A stretch of 32,678 nt of DNA from Candidatus Tayloriibacteriota bacterium. Its GTDB lineage: Bacteria; Patescibacteriota; Minisyncoccia; Phycocordibacterales; PALSA-1337. A program made the position numbers and the translations under genes. The notes beneath the pieces were generated by a model. The model made no database searches. It was not told where the DNA came from and saw only the letters and a list, made by a program, of their open reading frames with translations. Where the stretch lies: positions 1 to 32,678 of the forward strand of contig CAITNV010000012.1 in the NCBI GenBank assembly GCA_903893855.1, written 5' to 3'. Position 1 is the first letter of the stretch. Each line of letters starts with the position of its first letter. Positions 6,280-31,457 of this stretch are shown piece by piece.

Positions 6280-6308
6280 AATATAGTATATTCAAAAAGG
6301 AAAGTCAA
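6280..6308 (-). promoter_or_regulatory. Promoter of the 5748-6209 gene
   Basis: Minus-strand TTGACT (6303-6308), 17 bases, TATATT (6280-6285). Both boxes are close to sigma70 consensus. The -35 lies 10 bases from the -35 of the divergent pseudouridine synthase promoter. Confidence 0.65.
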
Positions 6309-6317
6309 TGACGCCTA

Positions 6318-6346
6318 TTGTTTTTTTTACATATATATGTTATTAT
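6318..6346 (+). promoter_or_regulatory. Leaderless promoter of the pseudouridine synthase gene
   Basis: TTGTTT (6318-6323), 17 bases, TATTAT (6341-6346), then six bases to the ATG at 6353. This rules out the upstream ATG at 6308, which precedes the promoter. Confidence 0.6.
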
Positions 6347-6352
6347 TTTATT

Positions 6353-7285
6353 ATGAAAAAAACCTCTCCAAAACAGGGCTACAATCCGAATCGTGGCTCA
6401 AAGCCTCGTTTTGGCCGACAACTACCAATGACTAAAAGCGGTCCTCAAGCGCCAGCGAAGGTCGTGAAGCGTCACGGCCCATCCCCTATCCCTAAGCAAC
6501 CAGCTGAAGCATTTCCAATGCGTATTAATAAATATCTTGCAATGAAGGGTTACACCACACGTCGCGAAGCCGATGTTCTCGTAGCTAAAAAATTCGTCAC
6601 CATCAACAGTCGCCCAGCAGTGCTCGGAGACAAGGTTAACAAAGACGATGTCGTCGAAGTTCGTCGCAACAATCGCAGCAAAAGTACTCCATCAACTAGC
6701 CCGACCAATTCAACCAATTCAAGTTCATCTACTCCCGACACCATTTCCACAACATTTCAATACTATGCATACAATAAACCACCGGGTATGCTTCTCGAAA
6801 CCGCCGCACGAAGCCTCCCACTTCAGGAGATTTTTCCAGCTATTCCACTCGACCGCGATGCAGAAGGACTTGTAATCCTCACCAACGATCGCCGTATCAT
6901 CGACCGACTCAACAATACTTCCCCAGCAAGCATCACATGGAGCCATGTCGCAGAAAACGCTCGTATTAAAGAATATTTGATCCGCACACGCTACCCCCTA
7001 AAGCCAAATTTTAAAGAAAAGATGGAGAAAGGCGTCACCGTAGGTGGCAAACATAAAGTCACGGTTGATTGCGCCATCAACATTATTAAAGAAAATCTTT
7101 TCACCCTCCGAACCACTGACAATAGTGGCCACATTCGACACATCTGTACACTTTTCTTCGCTGAAGTAACTGACCTTGTTCGCTCAAAGATCGGTACCGT
7201 ATCTCTTGGTAGCCTCGGCGCCAATAAATACCGTCCAATTAAAGACGAAGAATTGCAAATTTTCCTCCGCGAACTCGGTCTCTAA
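6353..7285 (+). CDS. Pseudouridine synthase, RsuA/RluB/RluE/RluF family
   Basis: The 310-aa product starts MKKTSPKQGY. It has a basic, Pro/Lys-rich N-terminal tail (1-55), an S4 RNA-binding domain (MRINKYLAMKGYTTRREAD to VNKDDVVEV, about 56-103), a Ser/Thr/Asn-rich linker, and the catalytic domain starting YAYNKPPGM. The active-site segment is IPLDRDAEGLVILTND, matching the family RLD-x-x-[TS/x]-x-GL motif with the catalytic Asp kept. These enzymes isomerise uridine in rRNA; the exact target cannot be told from sequence alone. The longer frame from 6308 would add a hydrophobic leader and lies upstream of the promoter, so it is rejected. The basic tail may add rRNA contacts. Confidence 0.9.
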   Translation: MKKTSPKQGYNPNRGSKPRFGRQLPMTKSGPQAPAKVVKRHGPSPIPKQPAEAFPMRINKYLAMKGYTTRREADVLVAKKFVTINSRPAVLGDKVNKDDVVEVRRNNRSKSTPSTSPTNSTNSSSSTPDTISTTFQYYAYNKPPGMLLETAARSLPLQEIFPAIPLDRDAEGLVILTNDRRIIDRLNNTSPASITWSHVAENARIKEYLIRTRYPLKPNFKEKMEKGVTVGGKHKVTVDCAINIIKENLFTLRTTDNSGHIRHICTLFFAEVTDLVRSKIGTVSLGSLGANKYRPIKDEELQIFLRELGL

Positions 7286-7356: not shown

Positions 7357-9135
7357 TTAAAAAGTTTTTTGTGACTTTTTATTATGGCGACGTATAATCA
7401 TAATCAAGCTAGATATCACTCCCAATAATGAAAATCCGACTATCGATACCAAAGGCCACGGAACAGTAGTCGTGGGGTGATTATTGTCTGGGTTTGGTTG
7501 CAATACTACATTACCACTACCCGCAATCATCGTCATGAGCGAATGATTTTCGACTACAGATTTGTTTGATAATACCTGAAGAATAATTTCCTCGCCGTTA
7601 GGGCCGGTAAAATTTGAATAAAGTGCATATATTGTATGACCATTTGATGTTAATGTATGCTCTTTTGCTAAACGATTTTGACCCAAGATATTTATTGTAA
7701 TTGGCTGGACGTTACTAAAATCCATCTTAATATCGGGGTTCTTGAGAAACGTAGTTACGGACCAATCACTGCCGATCGCCTGCCAAACTTCTAAAGTTGT
7801 AGAGCTGTTAGTCTGAACATATGCAGGTAACTGAATATTCACACAGACACCAATTTTTCCACACTTTTTTTCAATGGTTGATGTTGCTGCAGTATTTGGT
7901 TCAGGTGTAATCACATCTGTACTTGCATATGCCGTTGGTACAATAGGCCAAAGAAAACCATGAGGTCTTACAACTGGCGTTATCGGTATGACCTGATACT
8001 TACTACTAGTATTTCTGGGAGGAAGCTTCACAAAGCTGTAATTGGTAGGATCGAGGTCAAAAGTTTGTCCGCCATAGTCAACTCTAACCCATGCATGATC
8101 AGTATCAAATACGATAGAACTATTATATCCATCGGTCGCAAGTGCGTTTGCCAACACAGCAGCCTCATGTCTGCATACGCCTATGCCACACTCGAGCGCT
8201 TGTGCCATAGAATAGTTATCAGCTGCATTATTGGGAACTATTGTTTGCTGAACATTGTCAAATATTTTCTCAATATTTGCTTCTGACTGTCCTGACAGTG
8301 ATGTTGCATAATTTATGATGCTGTTATATGTATCATAATTAGACCCATTTGCTTGTACAAATTCTGAATTACTATTCACACGCATATTAGTAACTAAACC
8401 AGTAAGACCTGTGTCTGCCATTGCAGAACCTATAATTTTAGCGACCATCCAGTCACTGTCCGACAGTGTATTCATGTTGGGAGAAACTATTTCTCGGTAA
8501 TAGTTCTCGAAACCTTGAACGCTCGATTTCGGGACGATAGCCCATTGAGATTGACCGGACGCTGTATCTTCAACTCGTAAAAGCATCGTAGTATCAGTCA
8601 GTTTAGCTTTAAGTGCTGCCATCTCGGTAGATTTTTCTACCCCAGCAGGTAAATGAATCGATGAATCAAGTGGTCTAAAACCATTGGGAGCAGAACCGTC
8701 TCCTAAATTTTTGTTATCAGTGGATTGATTTGATGTATCAAGTGTGCTCATCGAACCCGAATATCCTCCCACACCCGAGCAAAGCGGCTCATTGAAATTC
8801 CCCATGTCTGGTGTCGCGTTTATATACTCTTCAACTGTCTTGTAACATTTTTGAGAACCACTATTAGAATTTCCTTTGGCAGAATTTTGAGTATTACTCT
8901 GACCTGACGGATACACATGTGGAGCATTCTGTGAATTTAATGTACCTGACAAACCAGCACCTGAATTCAGTGCATCACAATCTGCCTGAGTAGCACAAAT
9001 ATGAGGTGTTGTTTCTGGCGAGAACTTTAAATTCGTTTGAGCATAGACATAACCCACCTGTAGATTAACACTGACGCCCGTTAACAAGATGATTGTGACT
9101 ATGAGATATGATATTTTTTGTTTTGAGAGTATCAT
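7357..9135 (-). CDS. Secreted, C-terminally anchored transglutaminase-like protein
   Basis: The 592-aa product has a signal peptide (about 1-33, ending YVYAQ), a Ser/Asn/Gly-rich linker (about 50-165), a helical region, and a transglutaminase-like core. The likely triad is Cys321 (GVCRHEA), His347 (DHAWVRV) and Asp362 (FDLDPTN). The C-terminus has one TM (about 560-581) and a basic tail (RRHNKKSQK), so the domain should face outside. Proteins with this core act as cysteine proteases, amidases or cross-linkers; which applies here is unknown. It is the last gene of the five-gene operon starting at 12974, 24 bases after the preceding gene. A pair of Cys in the linker may form a disulfide. Confidence 0.82.
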   Translation of the reverse strand: MILSKQKISYLIVTIILLTGVSVNLQVGYVYAQTNLKFSPETTPHICATQADCDALNSGAGLSGTLNSQNAPHVYPSGQSNTQNSAKGNSNSGSQKCYKTVEEYINATPDMGNFNEPLCSGVGGYSGSMSTLDTSNQSTDNKNLGDGSAPNGFRPLDSSIHLPAGVEKSTEMAALKAKLTDTTMLLRVEDTASGQSQWAIVPKSSVQGFENYYREIVSPNMNTLSDSDWMVAKIIGSAMADTGLTGLVTNMRVNSNSEFVQANGSNYDTYNSIINYATSLSGQSEANIEKIFDNVQQTIVPNNAADNYSMAQALECGIGVCRHEAAVLANALATDGYNSSIVFDTDHAWVRVDYGGQTFDLDPTNYSFVKLPPRNTSSKYQVIPITPVVRPHGFLWPIVPTAYASTDVITPEPNTAATSTIEKKCGKIGVCVNIQLPAYVQTNSSTTLEVWQAIGSDWSVTTFLKNPDIKMDFSNVQPITINILGQNRLAKEHTLTSNGHTIYALYSNFTGPNGEEIILQVLSNKSVVENHSLMTMIAGSGNVVLQPNPDNNHPTTTVPWPLVSIVGFSLLGVISSLIMIIRRHNKKSQKTF

Positions 9136-9159
9136 TTTATGTTAGTAGCTAGTGTAAAA

Positions 9160-10326
9160 TTATTTTTGATAGCTAAGTTCACTATCCGTATATGAAGAAT
9201 TCGGGTACTGAGCAATAATCTGATCTACAGACAAAGTGTTCATCATATCAGTCCCAGTGTAGTTTGATATATCAACAGACTTCGAGCTTTGTAATAATCT
9301 ACCCTCTCGTAGAACGATTACGCGCGCAGCAGAAAATTGATTATCCTTGACACTCCTCGTCTCTAGATCCAAAGCTTTTCCAGATGGTGTATCAATTTCA
9401 CTTATTTTTATCTCTGAGACATCACTATTCTGCTTGGGATTATTATTTGAAATCGTCACGCCTGCCATAGTGACCTTATCGCAGGTGAACCAGTCACCCA
9501 TTGTGTTCCATCCTGTAGATTTAGCACAAAGATTTAAAAAAGGAATTTCAAACTTAAACCAATCAATATATCCGCCAGCAAATTGAGAAGATATTAGCGA
9601 TGATGTAGCGGCAGACTCCAGTGTAAAAGAAGTTCCATCCTTACTGTATATGGTGACTTTTTGACTTTTAAAATCAGATACTATTTTTGATGCACTACCT
9701 CTATTTTTTGTACCAGAGATATTTAGAGTCACCGTAGAATAACTAGATATATCAGTCGCTTGTGAATAATAACAAATCAAGGGATCACTCACTCCGACAA
9801 AATCTGTAAAATCTGTCATGTCACCACTGTTATTCTGATACCCCGCACATCCAGATTGCGTTTGACTCGAGGTGAGATCATTTGTTGGATTGTTTATGTC
9901 TGAATTACTATTTGTATCTAGTGCTCTGTTTTTCATTAAAGACCCGAAAAAATCTCTGACAGTTTGCTGACAATTGGCCTGATCTGTAGGAGATGAACTC
10001 GAACATATTTTACTTGGAATACTCGTAATACGTGAGTAGGCGTAATAGCCGAAACTTGCCAAAGCTATAATGGCTCCCACGAAACCGATAAGAACCAACC
10101 ACAAAATTACACGGCCAATAGTCCAACCTTTTTTTGCTGGGTTCAAATTTGGTGGCTGAGAAGCAGAACCTGTTGGTGCCTGTATGGGTGCTGAAACGGC
10201 ATTAAAAGCTTCTTGAATATCCTGCAACATCCAACCTTGTCCTGAGAGTGACGACGTTAAAGCCTCCCGAGATACTCCTGCAGCGAGTTGAGATCGTATG
10301 TATGAAATTATTTCTGGTGTAATCAT
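9160..10326 (-). CDS. Single-pass membrane protein with N-terminal helical module
   Basis: The 388-aa product begins with a 44-residue helical module (ITPEIISYIRSQLAAGVSREALTSSLSGQGW) of a kind I associate with many Parcubacteria membrane proteins. A Pro-rich linker (46-66) and one TM (about 73-97) follow, and then a roughly 290-residue domain, probably extracytoplasmic, containing several Cys and beta-rich Ser/Thr segments. No known catalytic motif is visible. Its place between the Tim44-like gene (18-base gap) and the transglutaminase-like gene (24-base gap) suggests it works with them at the envelope. Confidence 0.75.
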   Translation of the reverse strand: MITPEIISYIRSQLAAGVSREALTSSLSGQGWMLQDIQEAFNAVSAPIQAPTGSASQPPNLNPAKKGWTIGRVILWLVLIGFVGAIIALASFGYYAYSRITSIPSKICSSSSPTDQANCQQTVRDFFGSLMKNRALDTNSNSDINNPTNDLTSSQTQSGCAGYQNNSGDMTDFTDFVGVSDPLICYYSQATDISSYSTVTLNISGTKNRGSASKIVSDFKSQKVTIYSKDGTSFTLESAATSSLISSQFAGGYIDWFKFEIPFLNLCAKSTGWNTMGDWFTCDKVTMAGVTISNNNPKQNSDVSEIKISEIDTPSGKALDLETRSVKDNQFSAARVIVLREGRLLQSSKSVDISNYTGTDMMNTLSVDQIIAQYPNSSYTDSELSYQK

Positions 10327-10344
10327 ATAATTAATATTAATTTC

Positions 10345-11379
10345 TTAAACCTGTCTGATTTCGCTTACTACCCAATCAAACTGCCCGCTGGTAATTACGG
10401 CGTTACAATATTCACATTTACCGGTTGCATTAACCTGTAAAGCTGCGCCACAGTTCGGACATTTATTATCTTTGAGTTGTTTATTCGGGTCAGATGTAAC
10501 TCCGACTGTTCTGAGAAAAGTCCAATATTCAGTAAAACCTTTTGGTGTCTTGCTACCTTTGACCACAGCTCCTTCGCCATTGAGCGTATAGTCAGCAGCG
10601 CTTGCATCGATTTTAACCGTAATATAGTTAAAACTGACATCACTTTTTACATCAGTTATATCCATATGACCTATGACAATATTTTCCAAAACATCTTTTT
10701 CGTTTCGCAACTTCATATCAGAAAGTTGATTGGTAAAGCGAGATAGTACAGGATCGGAAACGAAGGGTCGCATAATAGATAGATCCTGCCTTCCCCACCC
10801 CTCTTGAAGTTTGTAAAAAGCGGTCTGTGCCTTGTCTTTAAATACCTCTTCATTAAAACCTGGGTCTACTGTCTTTATTTTGGTCAATTCAGCTTGAATA
10901 TCAACTCCACCGCCTACACCCGACATACCAGTGCTAAATTGTTTACCTAGACTAGAAAAAATACTGCCAGCTGCTGCACCTAGGGCAGCGTCGAAAAGAG
11001 CCCCCTCGACATTGCCTCTCTGTAGATCTTGCTGTACAGAATTATTCAGTATTGGGTTGTTGTTCATATTCCCCTGATTCATATTTCCGAATCCACCAAG
11101 TGGATTATTGCCTGATATGTTGCCAGACATAGGATTTTTTATATTGACACCCTTCTTCTTCAAAACATACACAATCCCATAGACGATAGCCAAAAATATG
11201 ACAACTGGAACTATACTTCCGGCACTAAAAGAAAAACCTCCGCCAGAAGAAGCCCCTGAGCTCGTATCAACATAATCCTGCCCTCCACCAACACGAGCAA
11301 AGGCTGTAGCGACGAAACCAAAAAACCCGATGACCGTCGTGATTAATACTTGGATTGAAAATCTACAATTACGTTTCAT
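10345..11379 (-). CDS. Tim44-like domain membrane protein with C-terminal zinc ribbon
   Basis: The 344-aa product has a signal-like segment ending ATAFA, the RVGGGQDY motif found at the mature N-terminus of many bacterial Tim44-like proteins, a TM (about 54-73), a Gly/Asn/Met-rich linker, and a Tim44-like domain from about 165 (DPGFNEEVFKDKAQTAFYKLQEGWGRQD). A four-Cys zinc ribbon (CPNC...CEYC) is inserted near the C-terminus before a final FDWVVSEI strand. Mitochondrial Tim44 tethers Hsp70 to the import channel; bacterial relatives are mostly uncharacterised membrane-associated proteins. It sits 16 bases after the SPFH gene in the same operon. Confidence 0.85.
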   Translation of the reverse strand: MKRNCRFSIQVLITTVIGFFGFVATAFARVGGGQDYVDTSSGASSGGGFSFSAGSIVPVVIFLAIVYGIVYVLKKKGVNIKNPMSGNISGNNPLGGFGNMNQGNMNNNPILNNSVQQDLQRGNVEGALFDAALGAAAGSIFSSLGKQFSTGMSGVGGGVDIQAELTKIKTVDPGFNEEVFKDKAQTAFYKLQEGWGRQDLSIMRPFVSDPVLSRFTNQLSDMKLRNEKDVLENIVIGHMDITDVKSDVSFNYITVKIDASAADYTLNGEGAVVKGSKTPKGFTEYWTFLRTVGVTSDPNKQLKDNKCPNCGAALQVNATGKCEYCNAVITSGQFDWVVSEIRQV

Positions 11380-11395
11380 TTTTTACAATTTGTAA

Positions 11396-12361
11396 CTATT
11401 GTTGTGCTGACGGAGGAGTCTGTGGGGGTGTAACTGACGGCTGTTGCGGTGCTTGTGAGGGTGGCTGAACCGCTTGATTCATACCTTGAGCCATAGCCGC
11501 ACCAAGGCCTGCACCCGCACCTAATCCCACTCCCGCACCTGCGATACTGCCCGGATTTCCGGCAGCCATTTTCAAAGCTTCAAGCTGCTGAAGCTTGGCG
11601 TAATTGGCCATTTTTGTCGGATCGATATTACCAAGTGCATCGATAGCATCAGCTTGAGCCTGAACATTAGCAATGGAATCTACTCGCTTCTGAGTTGCAT
11701 CATCAAAGTCGGTGTTTTCAATACGGAAATCCGCCATGGTAAAGCCGAAAGCCGCAAATTCACTAGCGATCTTTGTACCAATTGCTTTTGACAACTCTTC
11801 GCGATTTGAGTCTATGTCAATAAAACCGAATTTGGCCGAAGCGAGTGAGTCAGTGATAGGAGTGATAATACGACTGTTGATGACCTGCTTGAATTCTTCA
11901 AGGGACATCGAATCTCTATCACCCACAAACTCAGTGAAGAATTTCATTGGATCGGTGATAGTGAAAGTGTAATTCCCAAAAGCTCGAAGGCCGACAGGAA
12001 ACTTGTAGACAGGATCGGCATATTTAACCGGTGATGGTGTACCCCACTTTACATTCGGAATCTGATTTATATTAAAGAAAAAAACTTTGCCCTTATGCTT
12101 GCTATCACCGCCACGAAAAATAGAGAGCATCGAGGTGATAAATGGCGTGTTTGCTGTTGTAAGATCAACTGAACCGGGCGTATTTATCACTCCTTGTGGC
12201 TTGCCTTCGCTAACAAAAAGAAAAGCCTGCCCTGGACCGACGATAACTGTCGAATCATTCTGCAAGACTTGATCCGCGTCTGGAAAGCGCCAAACTAAAA
12301 TATCCGGTGTTTGCCCTATCCACTGAATGTTCGATATCTTTTGATTATTTAGGAATCCCAT
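11396..12361 (-). CDS. SPFH-domain protein, YdjI-like (virion core protein family)
   Basis: The 321-aa product resembles Bacillus subtilis YdjI: an N-terminal DILVWRFPD segment, FLFVSEGKPQGVINTPG, VKWGTPSPVKYADPVYKFPVGLRAFG and the SPFH core IRITDP-like FTITDPMKFFTEFVG. A helical region follows, then a Gly/Ala-rich stretch and a Pro/Gln-rich tail. In B. subtilis YdjI sits in the pspA-ydjGHI operon and takes part in envelope-stress complexes at the membrane. I recall a C-terminal zinc ribbon in some YdjI relatives; none is present here, but the next gene carries one. The protein has no TM of its own, so it probably relies on its membrane neighbours. Confidence 0.87.
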   Translation of the reverse strand: MGFLNNQKISNIQWIGQTPDILVWRFPDADQVLQNDSTVIVGPGQAFLFVSEGKPQGVINTPGSVDLTTANTPFITSMLSIFRGGDSKHKGKVFFFNINQIPNVKWGTPSPVKYADPVYKFPVGLRAFGNYTFTITDPMKFFTEFVGDRDSMSLEEFKQVINSRIITPITDSLASAKFGFIDIDSNREELSKAIGTKIASEFAAFGFTMADFRIENTDFDDATQKRVDSIANVQAQADAIDALGNIDPTKMANYAKLQQLEALKMAAGNPGSIAGAGVGLGAGAGLGAAMAQGMNQAVQPPSQAPQQPSVTPPQTPPSAQQ

Positions 12362-12386
12362 GTTTTTTTGATAATTAATTATTAGG

Positions 12387-12974
12387 TTACCAAGGATAAA
12401 GCGGTGTTAATTTGGCAGATACAGTCTTTGAGTACCAGTAATAAACTGCGATGTGTACTACGAAAGCGATGACCCATCCGATAAATAACCCACCAAAACT
12501 TGCAGAACCATATCCGGCAGTCGCTGCAACCATAGCCGCTCCCAGACCCAACATACTTAGTAAACCAAAAGCTGCACTGATGATAGTAACAACTAGGAAT
12601 GGCTTCCAAAATAATGTGAACATGTCATGGATATATCGTGATAGAAAACTATTGCCTTTAACCCAATTGTGAATCGGGTCATAGAGGAAAAAGAAAATAG
12701 CTCCACCAATAGCAGAGCCTATTGCACCAAATATAAGAGCTGCGATTATTACACCGAAATTAAACACACTATAGTAGGGTGACCAGCTAAACGCAGAAAT
12801 TATCATACCGAGCACTGCATTGATAACATATACAATGGAACCATATATAGCGAAGGTCTTTATAGTTTCCATAAACTTTTGATTCTTCTGCAGAGAATCA
12901 ACAGTGAATCCAGTGCCTGAGGATGGAGAATAAGGGGGTTTTGGTGGCACAGGGATATCATTTTGTGGAGGCAT
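12387..12974 (-). CDS. Four-TM membrane protein, first gene of the SPFH/Tim44 operon
   Basis: The 195-aa product has a Pro-rich cytoplasmic N-terminus (PVPPKPPYSP), an amphipathic helix (about 27-42) and four hydrophobic helices with Gly/Ala-rich packing motifs (GAIGSAIGGAIFFF, LGLGAAMVAATAGYG). It looks like a small membrane-scaffold or YIP1-like protein, but I cannot place it in a named family. It is followed after 25 bases by the YdjI-like gene, which suggests it may be the membrane partner of that protein, as YdjG/YdjH are in B. subtilis. That is an inference from context. Confidence 0.75.
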   Translation of the reverse strand: MPPQNDIPVPPKPPYSPSSGTGFTVDSLQKNQKFMETIKTFAIYGSIVYVINAVLGMIISAFSWSPYYSVFNFGVIIAALIFGAIGSAIGGAIFFFLYDPIHNWVKGNSFLSRYIHDMFTLFWKPFLVVTIISAAFGLLSMLGLGAAMVAATAGYGSASFGGLFIGWVIAFVVHIAVYYWYSKTVSAKLTPLYPW

Positions 12975-13009
12975 GAAATTAATTTTTAACTTTTCTATTA
13001 ATGTCTTAT

Positions 13010-13038
13010 ATTGTACCTCCCATCGTACAATTAGTAAA
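13010..13038 (-). promoter_or_regulatory. Promoter of the SPFH/Tim44/transglutaminase operon
   Basis: Minus-strand TTTACT (13033-13038), 17 bases, TACAAT (13010-13015). It predicts a leader of about 30 nt before the ATG at 12974. No other good promoter is seen inside the operon. Confidence 0.5.
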
Positions 13039-13096
13039 AACCAGTTATTAACACCTTTAAATGATTAAGTTACTACTCTAAAATTAAGTTTTTGAG

Positions 13097-14152
13097 CTAT
13101 GCTACTATGCGCTTTTTTGCTGTGCGATAAATCTCAAGGAGTGAGAAAAGGAAAGCAAGTACCAAAGGACCGAGCACGAAACCGATAAGACCAAAGAAAG
13201 CAATTCCACCCAAGACCGATAGCAAGATAAGGAAAGGGTGAATTTTAATACCACGATTGACCAAGTACGGTCCGAGCATATTGTCGATAAAGATAATTGC
13301 GAGTATTCCCCACACCAAAAGTCCGAATGCACTCGGTATTGAGCTATTAAGTACCAAGTATGCAATACCAGGACCTAGAACAAGCCATATACCAATACCG
13401 GGAATAAGCGCTGCAAGTACCGTCATAGTGCCCCACAAAGCAGGGTTAGGAATATTAAACACCGTAAACGCCAAACCCATCGATATTCCCTGCACGATTC
13501 CCACCGATATTGAACCGACGAAAATCGAACGAATAGCCTGCTCTAATTTCTCAAGAATATGTTCATCATCGACATCACCGAGTGGCGAAAGCATAATAAT
13601 CTGTCGGCGGAATTCATGTCCATCGCGAAGGAAATAAAAGAGAGCGAGGAACATCACAAGAAGTCCGAGGAAGATTTTAACTATCTGATCAAAAATCACA
13701 TTGATATTCGAGAAAGCCCAGTGAATAACATTCTGAAGGATGGTGACGATATTAAATGAATCAAAAGTGTAGTCTGGATAAATATTCGGGAAATAGTTCT
13801 GCACCACAGCCACCGCATGATTAAGCGTATCTACAAACTGCGTTCTTCCCGATTCATTAATGAGGTAAGAATAAATCGAATTGATTTCGTTATAGACCAA
13901 GAATGCCATGAATGTCAGTGGCACAAGAACCACCACCGCAATGATAATAATGCTTATAAAAGCCGCGAGCGAGCTCTTCTCTTTCTTATGAAACATATGC
14001 CGTACAATCCATTCATGAAGCGGATCGAAAATGACCGCAAGTGCCATAGCGAGCACAAGCGGCGTCAGAAATGGCAAAAAGATAAAAATTGCCAAAACCA
14101 TAACCGCGAGCAAAAGCCCGAAGAAAAAATAACTTGGTGATGATGTAATCAT
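13097..14152 (-). CDS. AI-2E family transporter (PerM/UPF0118)
   Basis: The 351-aa product has about eight hydrophobic segments arranged as in the PerM/AI-2E exporter family: two N-terminal helices, a long periplasmic-type loop (NESGRTQFVDTLNHAVAVVQNYFP), a helix with FYFLRDGHEF, then a C-terminal cluster including VLAALIPGIGIWLVLGPG and GPYLVNRGIKIHPFLILLSVLGGIAFFGLIGFVLGPL. Length is normal for the family. Members move varied substrates (autoinducer-2, sodium, protons); the substrate here is not predictable. It has a leaderless promoter that is divergent from the small-protein gene at 14259. Confidence 0.92.
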   Translation of the reverse strand: MITSSPSYFFFGLLLAVMVLAIFIFLPFLTPLVLAMALAVIFDPLHEWIVRHMFHKKEKSSLAAFISIIIIAVVVLVPLTFMAFLVYNEINSIYSYLINESGRTQFVDTLNHAVAVVQNYFPNIYPDYTFDSFNIVTILQNVIHWAFSNINVIFDQIVKIFLGLLVMFLALFYFLRDGHEFRRQIIMLSPLGDVDDEHILEKLEQAIRSIFVGSISVGIVQGISMGLAFTVFNIPNPALWGTMTVLAALIPGIGIWLVLGPGIAYLVLNSSIPSAFGLLVWGILAIIFIDNMLGPYLVNRGIKIHPFLILLSVLGGIAFFGLIGFVLGPLVLAFLFSLLEIYRTAKKRIVA

Positions 14153-18161: not shown

Positions 18162-18533
18162 TCACTGCGTGGCAATAGCGCGTAATTCAGCTCGTAAAGC
18201 CTGCCAATCGGGCACCGTAAGCGCCACAAGAGCCCAGAAGCCCTCTTTATGATTAAACTCCTTAAGATGGCATAGCTCATGTACGACGATATAATCCTGA
18301 AGTTCCGGACGTAAGCTCGCAATACGATAGTTAAAATTGAGATTTCCCGACCGCGAACAGCTTCCCCAGCGTGAGCGCTGATTACGCACACTTATACGCC
18401 CACCAACACGAGACAATTTTTGTAATGGCTCTGGGTGGCCGAGCTCATGATAGCGTGGAGCAAAATGCGCCAAACGTTCATGCACGATCTTTCGAGCTGT
18501 CTCTTTATGTGCAATATAATCACGTCGAGACAT
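18162..18533 (-). CDS. YgjP/DUF45-family metallopeptidase
   Basis: The 123-aa product has the zinc-metallopeptidase motif HELCH (85-89) with a third-ligand His95 in FNHKEGFW, and the family motif RSRWGSCS (53-60). This matches the YgjP-like (WLM/DUF45, M48-related) proteins, but it is short compared with YgjP (about 160-240 aa) and lacks the N-terminal beta region. It lies 14 bases downstream of the slipin gene and probably shares its transcript. It is probably a cytoplasmic protease; the target is unknown. Confidence 0.87.
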   Translation of the reverse strand: MSRRDYIAHKETARKIVHERLAHFAPRYHELGHPEPLQKLSRVGGRISVRNQRSRWGSCSRSGNLNFNYRIASLRPELQDYIVVHELCHLKEFNHKEGFWALVALTVPDWQALRAELRAIATQ

Positions 18534-18547
18534 AGTAAAAACCTAAA

Positions 18548-19348
18548 TTAAGCTCGCTTTGATGGTTTTGTTTCGTCGCGATCAGTTCGTGAATCCCCAC
18601 GAGAATCCTGACGGATCATAGAGATGGCTTCCTGTACCGTCGTCATAAACTGTGCTGGGAAAATAATCGTAGAATTCTTCTCTGTAGCGATCTCAGACAT
18701 AGTCTGAAGCGTTCGAAGCTGAAGTGCTACTGGATGTTGAGAGATGATGTCTGCTGCTTCACCGAGCTTTACTGCCGCTTGGAATTCACCTTGAGCAGCC
18801 ACAATCTTCGCTCGTCGTTCTCGTTCTGCTTCTGCTTCCTTCGCCATTGCTCGCTGCATATTGTCAGGAAGGACGATGTCTTTGATCTCAACTGCGGTAA
18901 CTTCCACTCCCCACGGTTCAGTATGAGCATCGATAACGGTCTTAATCTGCTGATTAATCTCGAGAGTCTGTGAGAGGAGCTGATCGAGCTGGAACTGACC
19001 CACAACGTTACGCACCGTTGTCTGGCTGATTTGATTGACTGCATCGAACACTCGCTCAACTGATATGACGGACTTCTTTGGATCAACGATATGATAATAC
19101 GCTACAGCCGCGATCTCGATAGATACATTGTCTTTGGTAATAATCTTCTGAGCAGGGATATTCATCGTAATAGTTCGTAGCGTCACCTGTGTCATCTTCT
19201 CAAAGATTGGGAGAAGAATAATAAGCCCCGGACCTCGAACACCCGTACACTTTCCAAGGAAAAAGACGACACCTCGATCGTATTCTTTAACAATACGAAG
19301 TGACAAAAACAAAAGCACCACAAGGACAATAATAATAGTGATAATCAT
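18548..19348 (-). CDS. Slipin (stomatin/prohibitin-like SPFH membrane protein)
   Basis: The 266-aa product has an N-terminal hairpin or TM (1-18) followed by IVKEYDRGVVFFLGKCTGVRGPGLIILLPIFEKM, the classic slipin start, then the SPFH core (TKDNVSIEIAAVAYYHIVDPKKSV), a helical region rich in Ala/Glu (AMAKEAEAERERRAKIVAAQGE) and an oligomerisation segment. Slipins form ring scaffolds in the membrane and are commonly next to an NfeD-type protein. Here no NfeD is present; the partner is the YgjP-like metallopeptidase 14 bases downstream. The weak box TAATTT lies six bases before the ATG. Confidence 0.93.
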   Translation of the reverse strand: MIITIIIVLVVLLFLSLRIVKEYDRGVVFFLGKCTGVRGPGLIILLPIFEKMTQVTLRTITMNIPAQKIITKDNVSIEIAAVAYYHIVDPKKSVISVERVFDAVNQISQTTVRNVVGQFQLDQLLSQTLEINQQIKTVIDAHTEPWGVEVTAVEIKDIVLPDNMQRAMAKEAEAERERRAKIVAAQGEFQAAVKLGEAADIISQHPVALQLRTLQTMSEIATEKNSTIIFPAQFMTTVQEAISMIRQDSRGDSRTDRDETKPSKRA

Positions 19349-30565: not shown

Positions 30566-30587
30566 CTAATGATTTAGGATGGTCGAT

Positions 30588-31457
30588 ATGCCATATACAA
30601 CAAATCCACACATGCCGAGTATCAGGAAAGAGGCGGCACAGCTCCTCATACGCAAGAAGTGGTCAACAAGAAAGGTCGCACGTCATTTTGGTTTCAACCA
30701 GAGTACAATTGTAAGATGGTTTAAAAAATCAAAACTGTATGGGTACCACCCCATACCCACACTTTCTTCGAAACCTAAACATCATTCGAAAGAGTTGAGT
30801 AACGAGCTCGTATGGAAAATATTTCACCAGAGAATTAAAACTAAGAGATGTGCTGAGGTGATACACCAAGAACTTAAGAACGAAGGGGTTGTTGTATCAC
30901 TTTCGTCAGTGAAGCGCACACTCGAGCGTTTGGAGCTCCTGAAGAAACGGAGTCCGTACAAAAGGTATCACCCTCCTGTAGACCGTCCATACCCTCTAAA
31001 ACCAGGAGATTTGGTTGAAATTGATACCATACACATCATGGTCGACAAGAAGAAAAGAATCTACATTTATGTTCTCATCGATGTGTACTCACGGTGGGTA
31101 TATGCAAAGGCGTATCAGAAAATCGGAGGTGATCCATCGCTTAAATTTGTCCGTGAAGCACAAAAATACGCACCGTTTCCATTTCGAATGTTGCAGAGTG
31201 ACCATGGACCAGAGTTCGGAAGCTGGTTTCTTACACAAGTACAAAAAGATCATCGCTTCACAAGAATTGGGAAACCAAATGACAATGCACACATTGAACG
31301 ATTCAATCGAACACTTCAGGAAGAGTGTACCGACAGGGTGAAGAAAAATGTGTGGTCACTTAATCATGCTATCAGAAAATATCTTGGGTATTACAACAAC
31401 GAACGGCTGCACATGGGAATTTCTCTTCGAGCGCCGGTGCAATTATTAACAAAGTGA
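30588..31457 (+). CDS. IS481-like transposase (DDE integrase fold)
   Basis: The 289-aa product starts MPYTTNP. An N-terminal HTH (IRKKWSTRKVARHFGFNQSTIVRWF) is followed by a second HTH-like region (VVVSLSSVKRTLERLEL), a linker and the rve core with the DDE triad: Asp in LVEIDTIHI, Asp in QSDHGPEF, and Glu in NAHIERFNRTLQEE. The C-terminus YYNNERLHMGISLRAPVQLL is typical of IS3/IS481 transposases. It is one frame with no upstream orfA, which fits IS481 rather than IS3. The start at 30588 has AGGA eight bases upstream (30576-30579); an ATG three codons earlier (30579) overlaps that site. Confidence 0.92.
   Translation: MPYTTNPHMPSIRKEAAQLLIRKKWSTRKVARHFGFNQSTIVRWFKKSKLYGYHPIPTLSSKPKHHSKELSNELVWKIFHQRIKTKRCAEVIHQELKNEGVVVSLSSVKRTLERLELLKKRSPYKRYHPPVDRPYPLKPGDLVEIDTIHIMVDKKKRIYIYVLIDVYSRWVYAKAYQKIGGDPSLKFVREAQKYAPFPFRMLQSDHGPEFGSWFLTQVQKDHRFTRIGKPNDNAHIERFNRTLQEECTDRVKKNVWSLNHAIRKYLGYYNNERLHMGISLRAPVQLLTK

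What the first reader, a model, noticed from the sequence alone, without database searches (positions are those of the whole stretch)
7357..13038. Five-gene envelope operon joining YdjI-like SPFH, Tim44/zinc-ribbon and transglutaminase-like proteins
Five genes on one strand with gaps of 16-25 bases follow one promoter: a four-TM protein, a YdjI-like SPFH protein, a Tim44-like membrane protein with a zinc ribbon, an anchored protein with a Parcubacteria-type helical module, and an anchored secreted transglutaminase-like protein with a Cys321/His347/Asp362 triad. In B. subtilis YdjI works with membrane proteins in the pspA operon, but pspA is absent here. The set suggests a membrane-scaffold complex with an external protein-modifying or proteolytic enzyme, perhaps acting in envelope repair or host attachment.
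Basis: partly seen in the sequence, partly recalled or inferred. Interest (0 to 1): 0.65.

Follow-up and report, generated by a model that had tools for sequence, protein, structure and literature searches.

The report
SPFH–Tim44 pair inside surface-protein operon
In a tiny-genome bacterium, a widely conserved two-gene membrane-scaffold pair (an SPFH protein and its membrane-anchored Tim44/zinc-ribbon partner) sits inside an operon for surface proteins that include a transglutaminase-like enzyme, which suggests a membrane platform that works without the usual PspA partner.

Summary
In detail: five minus-strand genes with gaps of 25, 16, 18 and 24 bases encode the stated proteins, and PspA is absent from this 100%-complete genome. 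The five genes are not a conserved unit. They are two modules. (1) The YdjI-type SPFH gene (g2) and Tim44/zinc-ribbon gene (g3) form a conserved adjacent pair: in a survey of 380 genomes of the phylum, all six genomes with the full Tim44/zinc-ribbon protein have the SPFH gene next to it. The pair recurs in Chlorobi, Ozemobacteria/Riflebacteria and a Bacillota plasmid. (2) g1, g4 and g5 recur in one relative (G039) as g1–X–g4–g5, with a different membrane-anchored protein where SPFH–Tim44 sits here. g5 is transglutaminase-like: Cys321, His347 and Asp362 are invariant in the four sequences found, and all four match Pfam Transglut_core weakly. Structure models were too poor to test triad geometry. 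Best reading: the Tim44/zinc-ribbon protein anchors the soluble SPFH protein at the membrane, as YdjG/YdjH do for YdjI but without PspA or a TPM protein. Here the pair has been placed in an operon of anchored surface proteins. That the two modules act together is inference from adjacency in one genome.

The parts
12387..12974 (-). g1: four-helix membrane protein (195 aa), Pro-rich N-terminus, conserved C-terminal YPW; first gene of the operon
   Evidence: relatives at 75/63/56/48% identity in G039, G023, G034, G045; no Pfam family.
11396..12361 (-). g2: soluble YdjI-type SPFH protein (321 aa) without a hydrophobic anchor, Gly/Pro/Gln-rich tail, no zinc ribbon
   Evidence: PF13421 132.4 bits, E 2.2e-38; no hydrophobic helix found; grouped with Chlorobi/Ozemobacteria SPFH with 100/100 support.
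10345..11379 (-). g3: signal-like N-terminus, Gly-rich outer stretch, one membrane helix (about 55-73), then cytosolic Tim44 domain (163-299) and a C4 zinc ribbon (C307, C310, C322, C325)
   Evidence: PF04280 92.7 bits, E 3.1e-26; hydrophobic helices and cysteines; alignment A3 with all four ribbon cysteines invariant.
9160..10326 (-). g4: N-terminal helical module (about 1-48), membrane helix 73-91, outer domain with six cysteines, fold unknown
   Evidence: Module in 17 of 60 relatives; 31% identity to the G039 protein with which it shares gene order; Cys positions.
7357..9135 (-). g5: exported, C-terminally anchored transglutaminase-like protein (592 aa); C321, H347, D362
   Evidence: Relative in G039 at 51-52%; C, H and D invariant in 4 sequences; PF01841 matched by 4 of 4 members at E<=10, best 3.8e-6.
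13010..13038 (-). promoter-like site upstream of g1 (TTTACT-17-TACAAT), unproven
   Evidence: 9 of 12 match; such sites are common by chance in this region.

Best explanation
The operon is a composite. SPFH (g2) and Tim44/zinc-ribbon (g3) are a portable membrane-scaffold module: g3 sits in the membrane with its Tim44 domain and zinc ribbon inside the cell, where it recruits and orders the soluble SPFH oligomer on the inner face. This is the role the membrane proteins YdjG and YdjH play for YdjI in B. subtilis, but here without PspA or a TPM protein. The module has been placed between g1 and g4-g5 of a surface-protein cassette, so that the scaffold and the anchored outer proteins (g4 and the transglutaminase-like g5) are made together. 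The scaffold most likely gathers or stabilises these membrane proteins at one site, while g5 cuts or cross-links proteins on the outside. Shown: gene content, conserved pairing of g2 with g3, separate recurrence of g1, g4 and g5, triad conservation, absence of PspA and TPM. Inferred: recruitment, oligomer formation, any physical link between the two modules, and g5's activity and target.
For: SPFH and Tim44/zinc-ribbon genes are adjacent in G336, G270, G345, G281, G452 and the window. These are all six full-length Tim44/zinc-ribbon genes found when 380 genomes of the phylum were searched, and 6 of the 7 genomes with a strong full-length SPFH match. The pair is also adjacent in three Chlorobi loci, convergent neighbours in three Ozemobacteria/Riflebacteria loci, and 15 bases apart in reverse order on a Monoglobus plasmid. 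G039 carries g1-X-g4-g5 with gaps of 14 and 18 bases and a 4-base overlap, where X is a different one-helix protein. In B. subtilis YdjI is soluble and needs the membrane proteins YdjG/YdjH for membrane recruitment (PMC8581546). YdjG is described as zinc ribbons plus an NTF2-like domain plus a membrane helix (PMC11237479); Tim44 domains belong to the NTF2-like fold group (own knowledge). PspA and TPM families are absent from the genome, with controls ringing.
Against: All five genes together are seen in one genome only. In the only near relative with this SPFH (G049, 84-86% identity, 66% complete) the neighbours differ and no Tim44 gene was found. No physical interaction was tested. Recruitment of SPFH by the Tim44 protein is by analogy. 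The window's own g5 scores only E 0.19 against Transglut_core; support comes through its relatives.
Confidence: 0.5

Rival explanations
1. Two unrelated modules share a transcript by chance insertion: SPFH-Tim44 does its own membrane-stress work, and g1, g4 and g5 are surface proteins with no functional link to it.
For: The modules occur apart everywhere else seen: the SPFH-Tim44 pair without g1/g4/g5 in other phyla and families, and g1-X-g4-g5 without the pair in G039. Distribution of each is sporadic.
Against: Short gaps of 16-25 bases on both sides of the pair keep it co-transcribable with its neighbours. X in G039 is also a membrane-anchored protein at the same place.
Confidence: 0.3
2. 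SPFH-Tim44 is a membrane-protein quality-control or insertion adaptor: the Tim44 domain binds unfolded membrane or translocating proteins and SPFH forms the cage, in the manner of HflKC around FtsH or Tim44 at the mitochondrial import channel. Here it helps export of the large anchored proteins g4 and g5.
For: g3 has a Tim44 domain and partial similarity to the Tim44/TimA adaptor family (67.1 bits, below the cut-off of 80). Its neighbours g4 and g5 are exported.
Against: The pair in other lineages is beside genes of other kinds. No protease or translocon gene is consistently next to it in the loci read.
Confidence: 0.12
3. The cassette's main task is contact with a host or neighbour cell: g5 cross-links or cleaves surface proteins and g4 is an adhesin-like stalk; the scaffold only clusters them.
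For: g4 and g5 are anchored outside; the g4-like gene near g1 in G023 carries a bacterial surface Ig-like domain (E 2.5e-19), and that locus has an fn3-like protein between.
Against: No adhesive domain was detected in this window's g4; no host is known for this genome; related genomes mostly lack the genes.
Confidence: 0.08

Closest known systems
Bacillus subtilis pspA-ydjGHI operon (YdjI SPFH with membrane partners YdjG and YdjH)
   Same: Soluble SPFH protein of the same Pfam family (PF13421; the B. subtilis control genome rings), with a membrane-anchored zinc-ribbon partner encoded beside it; YdjG carries an NTF2-like domain, and Tim44 domains share that fold group (own knowledge).
   Different: No PspA and no TPM (YdjH-type) protein in the genome; the partner carries a recognisable Tim44 domain with the ribbon at the C-terminus; the operon adds anchored outer proteins.
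Tim44/TimA family adaptor proteins
   Same: Signal-like N-terminus, membrane helix and Tim44 domain; PF04280 well above cut-off.
   Different: C-terminal zinc ribbon; below NCBIfam cut-offs for Tim44_TimA_adap (67.1 of 80) and TimA (35.3 of 200); paired with SPFH.
Transglutaminase-like superfamily (PF01841)
   Same: Cys-His-Asp order and motifs CR(H/D)...H(A/V/T)(W/F)V...LDP; all four relatives match the profile.
   Different: Very divergent: own score 12.4 bits against a cut-off of 23; long unique N- and C-terminal regions; anchored outside in a Patescibacterium.
PspA-linked band-7 / zinc-ribbon / polyamine operons of other bacteria (PMC11237479)
   Same: SPFH next to a membrane zinc-ribbon or DUF4178 protein, seen here on Novosphingobium, Comamonas and Paracoccus plasmids.
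   Different: No Tim44 protein is annotated next to SPFH in those loci, and the paper does not mention Tim44.

Membership tests
YdjI-type SPFH (Band_7_1) | PF13421 over the curated cut-off across the domain | tested here: met
   132.4 bits against 24, positions 1-207 of 211.
YdjI-type SPFH (Band_7_1) | No own membrane anchor | tested here: met
   No hydrophobic helix in g2; YdjI also lacks one.
PSP system of ydjGHI type | PspA/IM30 in the operon or genome | tested here: not met
   PF04012 absent from the 100%-complete genome; controls ring.
PSP system of ydjGHI type | TPM-domain membrane protein (YdjH) | tested here: not met
   PF04536 absent from the genome; controls ring.
PSP system of ydjGHI type | Membrane zinc-ribbon protein with NTF2-like domain (YdjG) | tested here: inconclusive
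   g3 has membrane helix, Tim44 domain and ribbon; homology to YdjG itself was not tested.
Tim44 domain proteins | PF04280 over cut-off | tested here: met
   92.7 bits against 29.6.
TimA / Tim44_TimA adaptor (NCBIfam) | Score over the curated cut-off | tested here: not met
   67.1 of 80 and 35.3 of 200.
Transglutaminase-like superfamily | Cys-His-Asp triad conserved among relatives | tested here: met
   Invariant in 4 sequences including a paralogue in the same genome.
Transglutaminase-like superfamily | Profile match PF01841 | tested here: inconclusive
   4 of 4 members match, best 3.8e-6; window protein itself 0.19, below cut-off.
Transglutaminase-like superfamily | Triad residues close together in a structure | tested here: inconclusive
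   Models of pLDDT 37 and 47 without relatives; helix-strand-strand-strand order fits; first Foldseek hits are arylamine N-acetyltransferases and a TGase but E is about 0.5.
Conserved five-gene operon | Same five genes adjacent in relatives | tested here: not met
   Not found in any locus examined; the modules recur separately.

The most novel reading that the evidence does not exclude
SPFH plus membrane-anchored Tim44/zinc-ribbon is a distinct, horizontally spread, PspA-free membrane-scaffold system present in several phyla, and in this Patescibacterium it is physically coupled across the membrane to an anchored transglutaminase-like enzyme, giving an inside scaffold that controls an outside protein-modifying enzyme.
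Probability: 0.25. Interest if true: 0.65.

Novelty: new variant of a known kind. Interest (0 to 1): 0.45.

Why it matters
SPFH proteins are found across life, but how soluble bacterial SPFH proteins reach the membrane and what they serve is known for few cases. A conserved SPFH–Tim44/zinc-ribbon pair in several phyla names a testable membrane partner, with a link to the fold family of a mitochondrial import protein. No paper held here was found to describe the pair. The pair also occurs in lineages with cultivable members, such as Chlorobium relatives and Monoglobus, so the idea can be tested there.

Tried and rejected
Cobalamin adenosyltransferase match of g5 (E 5e-4): seen in one of four relatives only, below cut-off, covers the helical stretch before the triad; rejected as chance. 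Search for g5 relatives in viral contigs: none. Sequence comparison of g5 with solved structures: nothing meaningful. Structure models of g5 were made from the single sequence because the relatives came from a source that the folding tool does not list as permitted; confidence was too low. The second SPFH-like gene (18548-19348) matched only part of PF13421 at low score and was set aside as an ordinary stomatin/prohibitin-type protein. Horizontal origin from Chlorobi or Ozemobacteria: the SPFH tree groups the window with them (100/100), but the Tim44 tree is unresolved and the window's Tim44 domain is closer by identity to most other Patescibacteria (40-41% in four, 28% in one) than to Chlorobi/Ozemobacteria (33-37%), so direction and joint transfer stay open.

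Full report
What is there. On the minus strand, five genes follow one another with gaps of 25, 16, 18 and 24 bases: g1 (12387-12974), g2 (11396-12361), g3 (10345-11379), g4 (9160-10326) and g5 (7357-9135). The AI-2E-type transporter gene upstream is on the same strand and ends 122 bases before g1. The promoter-like site in that gap is no better than many chance matches, so the transcript start is not established. The gene downstream (6308-7285) is convergent.

Identities. g2 is a YdjI-type SPFH protein (PF13421, 2.2e-38) with no hydrophobic anchor. g3 has a signal-like N-terminus ending AFAR, a Gly-rich stretch, a membrane helix followed by KKK, a Tim44 domain (PF04280, 3.1e-26) and a zinc ribbon. 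By the positive-inside rule the Tim44 and ribbon part lies inside the cell, where g2 is. g4 has a short N-terminal helical module, one membrane helix and an outer domain with six cysteines; the module occurs on otherwise different proteins in 17 of 60 relatives. g5 has an N-terminal signal and a C-terminal membrane helix followed by basic residues, so its bulk is outside. g1 has four hydrophobic helices and no known family.

The transglutaminase-like claim. g5 alone does not match Pfam's transglutaminase models at the usual cut-off. Four sequences could be aligned over the core: g5, the G039 protein, a paralogue elsewhere in the same genome (contig C1, L074 5900-7036) and a fragment-like gene in G031. 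C321, H347 and D362 are invariant in all four, as are G319, V320 and R322 next to the cysteine. All four match PF01841 at E<=10 with a best value of 3.8e-6. Structure models from the single sequence had mean pLDDT of 37 and 47. Their secondary structure, a helix just after C321 and then strands leading into H347 and D362, is the order expected, and the top Foldseek hits are arylamine N-acetyltransferases and a TGase, which carry such a triad, but with E about 0.5. I take the family as likely and the geometry as untested.

The SPFH–Tim44 pair. In a survey of 380 genomes of the phylum, seven genomes including the window's have a strong full-length PF13421 match (over 80 bits). Six of the seven have a Tim44/zinc-ribbon gene directly beside it; the seventh, G267, has a different zinc-ribbon membrane protein there. 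In the other direction, a profile of the Tim44/zinc-ribbon protein finds six full-length genes in the 380 genomes (over 380 bits), and all six are beside SPFH; the profile was built from these same six, so its reach to more distant forms is not proven. They come from four families of the phylum. The same two genes are adjacent in three Chlorobi loci and are convergent neighbours in three Ozemobacteria/Riflebacteria loci, where the Tim44 protein holds two Tim44-like units. On a Monoglobus (Bacillota) plasmid the genes annotated 'TIM44-like' and 'SPFH' lie 15 bases apart. This is far more than chance adjacency, and it crosses phyla.

The other module. g1 has relatives in only four of 100 related genomes, g5 in one with full length, g2 in one. 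G039 has g1 (75%), then a 219-aa one-helix protein X, then g4 (31%) and g5 (51%), with gaps of 14 and 18 bases and a 4-base overlap. A profile search found no Tim44 gene in G039, G023, G001, G049 or G267; the same profile did find the six genes. In G023, g1 is followed by a one-helix protein, an fn3-like protein and a protein with a g4-like N-terminal module and an Ig-like surface domain. So in these two relatives g1 heads a run of anchored outer proteins, whereas in G045 its neighbour is a phosphatase-like gene. In the window the SPFH–Tim44 pair occupies the place where G039 has X.

How it may work. In B. subtilis, YdjI is soluble and needs the membrane proteins YdjG and YdjH for membrane recruitment, and PspA foci depend on YdjI (PMC8581546). 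YdjG is described as zinc ribbons plus an NTF2-like domain plus a membrane helix (PMC11237479). g3 has the same kinds of parts, since Tim44 domains are NTF2-like (own knowledge). In Oscillospiraceae and other loci read here the SPFH gene also sits beside zinc-ribbon and TPM membrane proteins. The economical reading is that a membrane protein with a ribbon and an NTF2-like domain is a common partner of YdjI-type SPFH, and that the Tim44 form is one version. In this genome PspA and TPM proteins are absent, so the scaffold must work without them. What it scaffolds is not shown. The operon context points to g1, g4 and g5; the separate recurrence of the modules warns that the link may be recent or neutral.

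Verdict. The conserved thing is the SPFH–Tim44/zinc-ribbon pair, which I did not find described in the papers held. The five-gene set is a rare composite.

Noticed in passing
Own genome contig C1, locus L074 5900-7036 (minus): A second transglutaminase-like protein (at least 378 aa, cut by the contig end) with the same Cys-His-Asp motifs; a related short gene lies in G031 (L021 2631-2933).
   Followed up: partly
18548-19348 (minus), with 18162-18533 beside it: A second SPFH gene of stomatin/prohibitin type next to a small protein with a HELCHLxxxNH metalloprotease-like motif.
   Followed up: no
30579-31457 (plus): Integrase/transposase-like gene (DDE type by appearance), a sign of mobile DNA in this contig.
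   Followed up: no
L020 (G039:C16) 12779-13838: Integrase- and orfA-like genes of an insertion element about 3 kb beyond the g1-X-g4-g5 cassette of the relative.
   Followed up: no
L066-L069 (G467, G475, G450, G343): Family f78 genomes carry an SPFH gene followed by two zinc-ribbon membrane proteins in a conserved order, another partner arrangement for YdjI-type SPFH.
   Followed up: partly
L060-L062 (G336, G270, G345): In family f87 a small gene lies before the SPFH-Tim44 pair (YtxH-like, E 3.6e-16, in G336) and a methyltransferase-like gene follows it, a possible extended operon.
   Followed up: partly
L004-L009 Tim44 genes: In Chlorobi and Ozemobacteria the SPFH-linked Tim44 protein is duplicated in tandem, with two Tim44/ribbon units in one chain.
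   Followed up: partly
L113 (Novosphingobium plasmid): SPFH followed by DUF4178, DUF350 and polyamine aminopropyltransferase genes, resembling a published PspA-linked context but on a plasmid.
   Followed up: no
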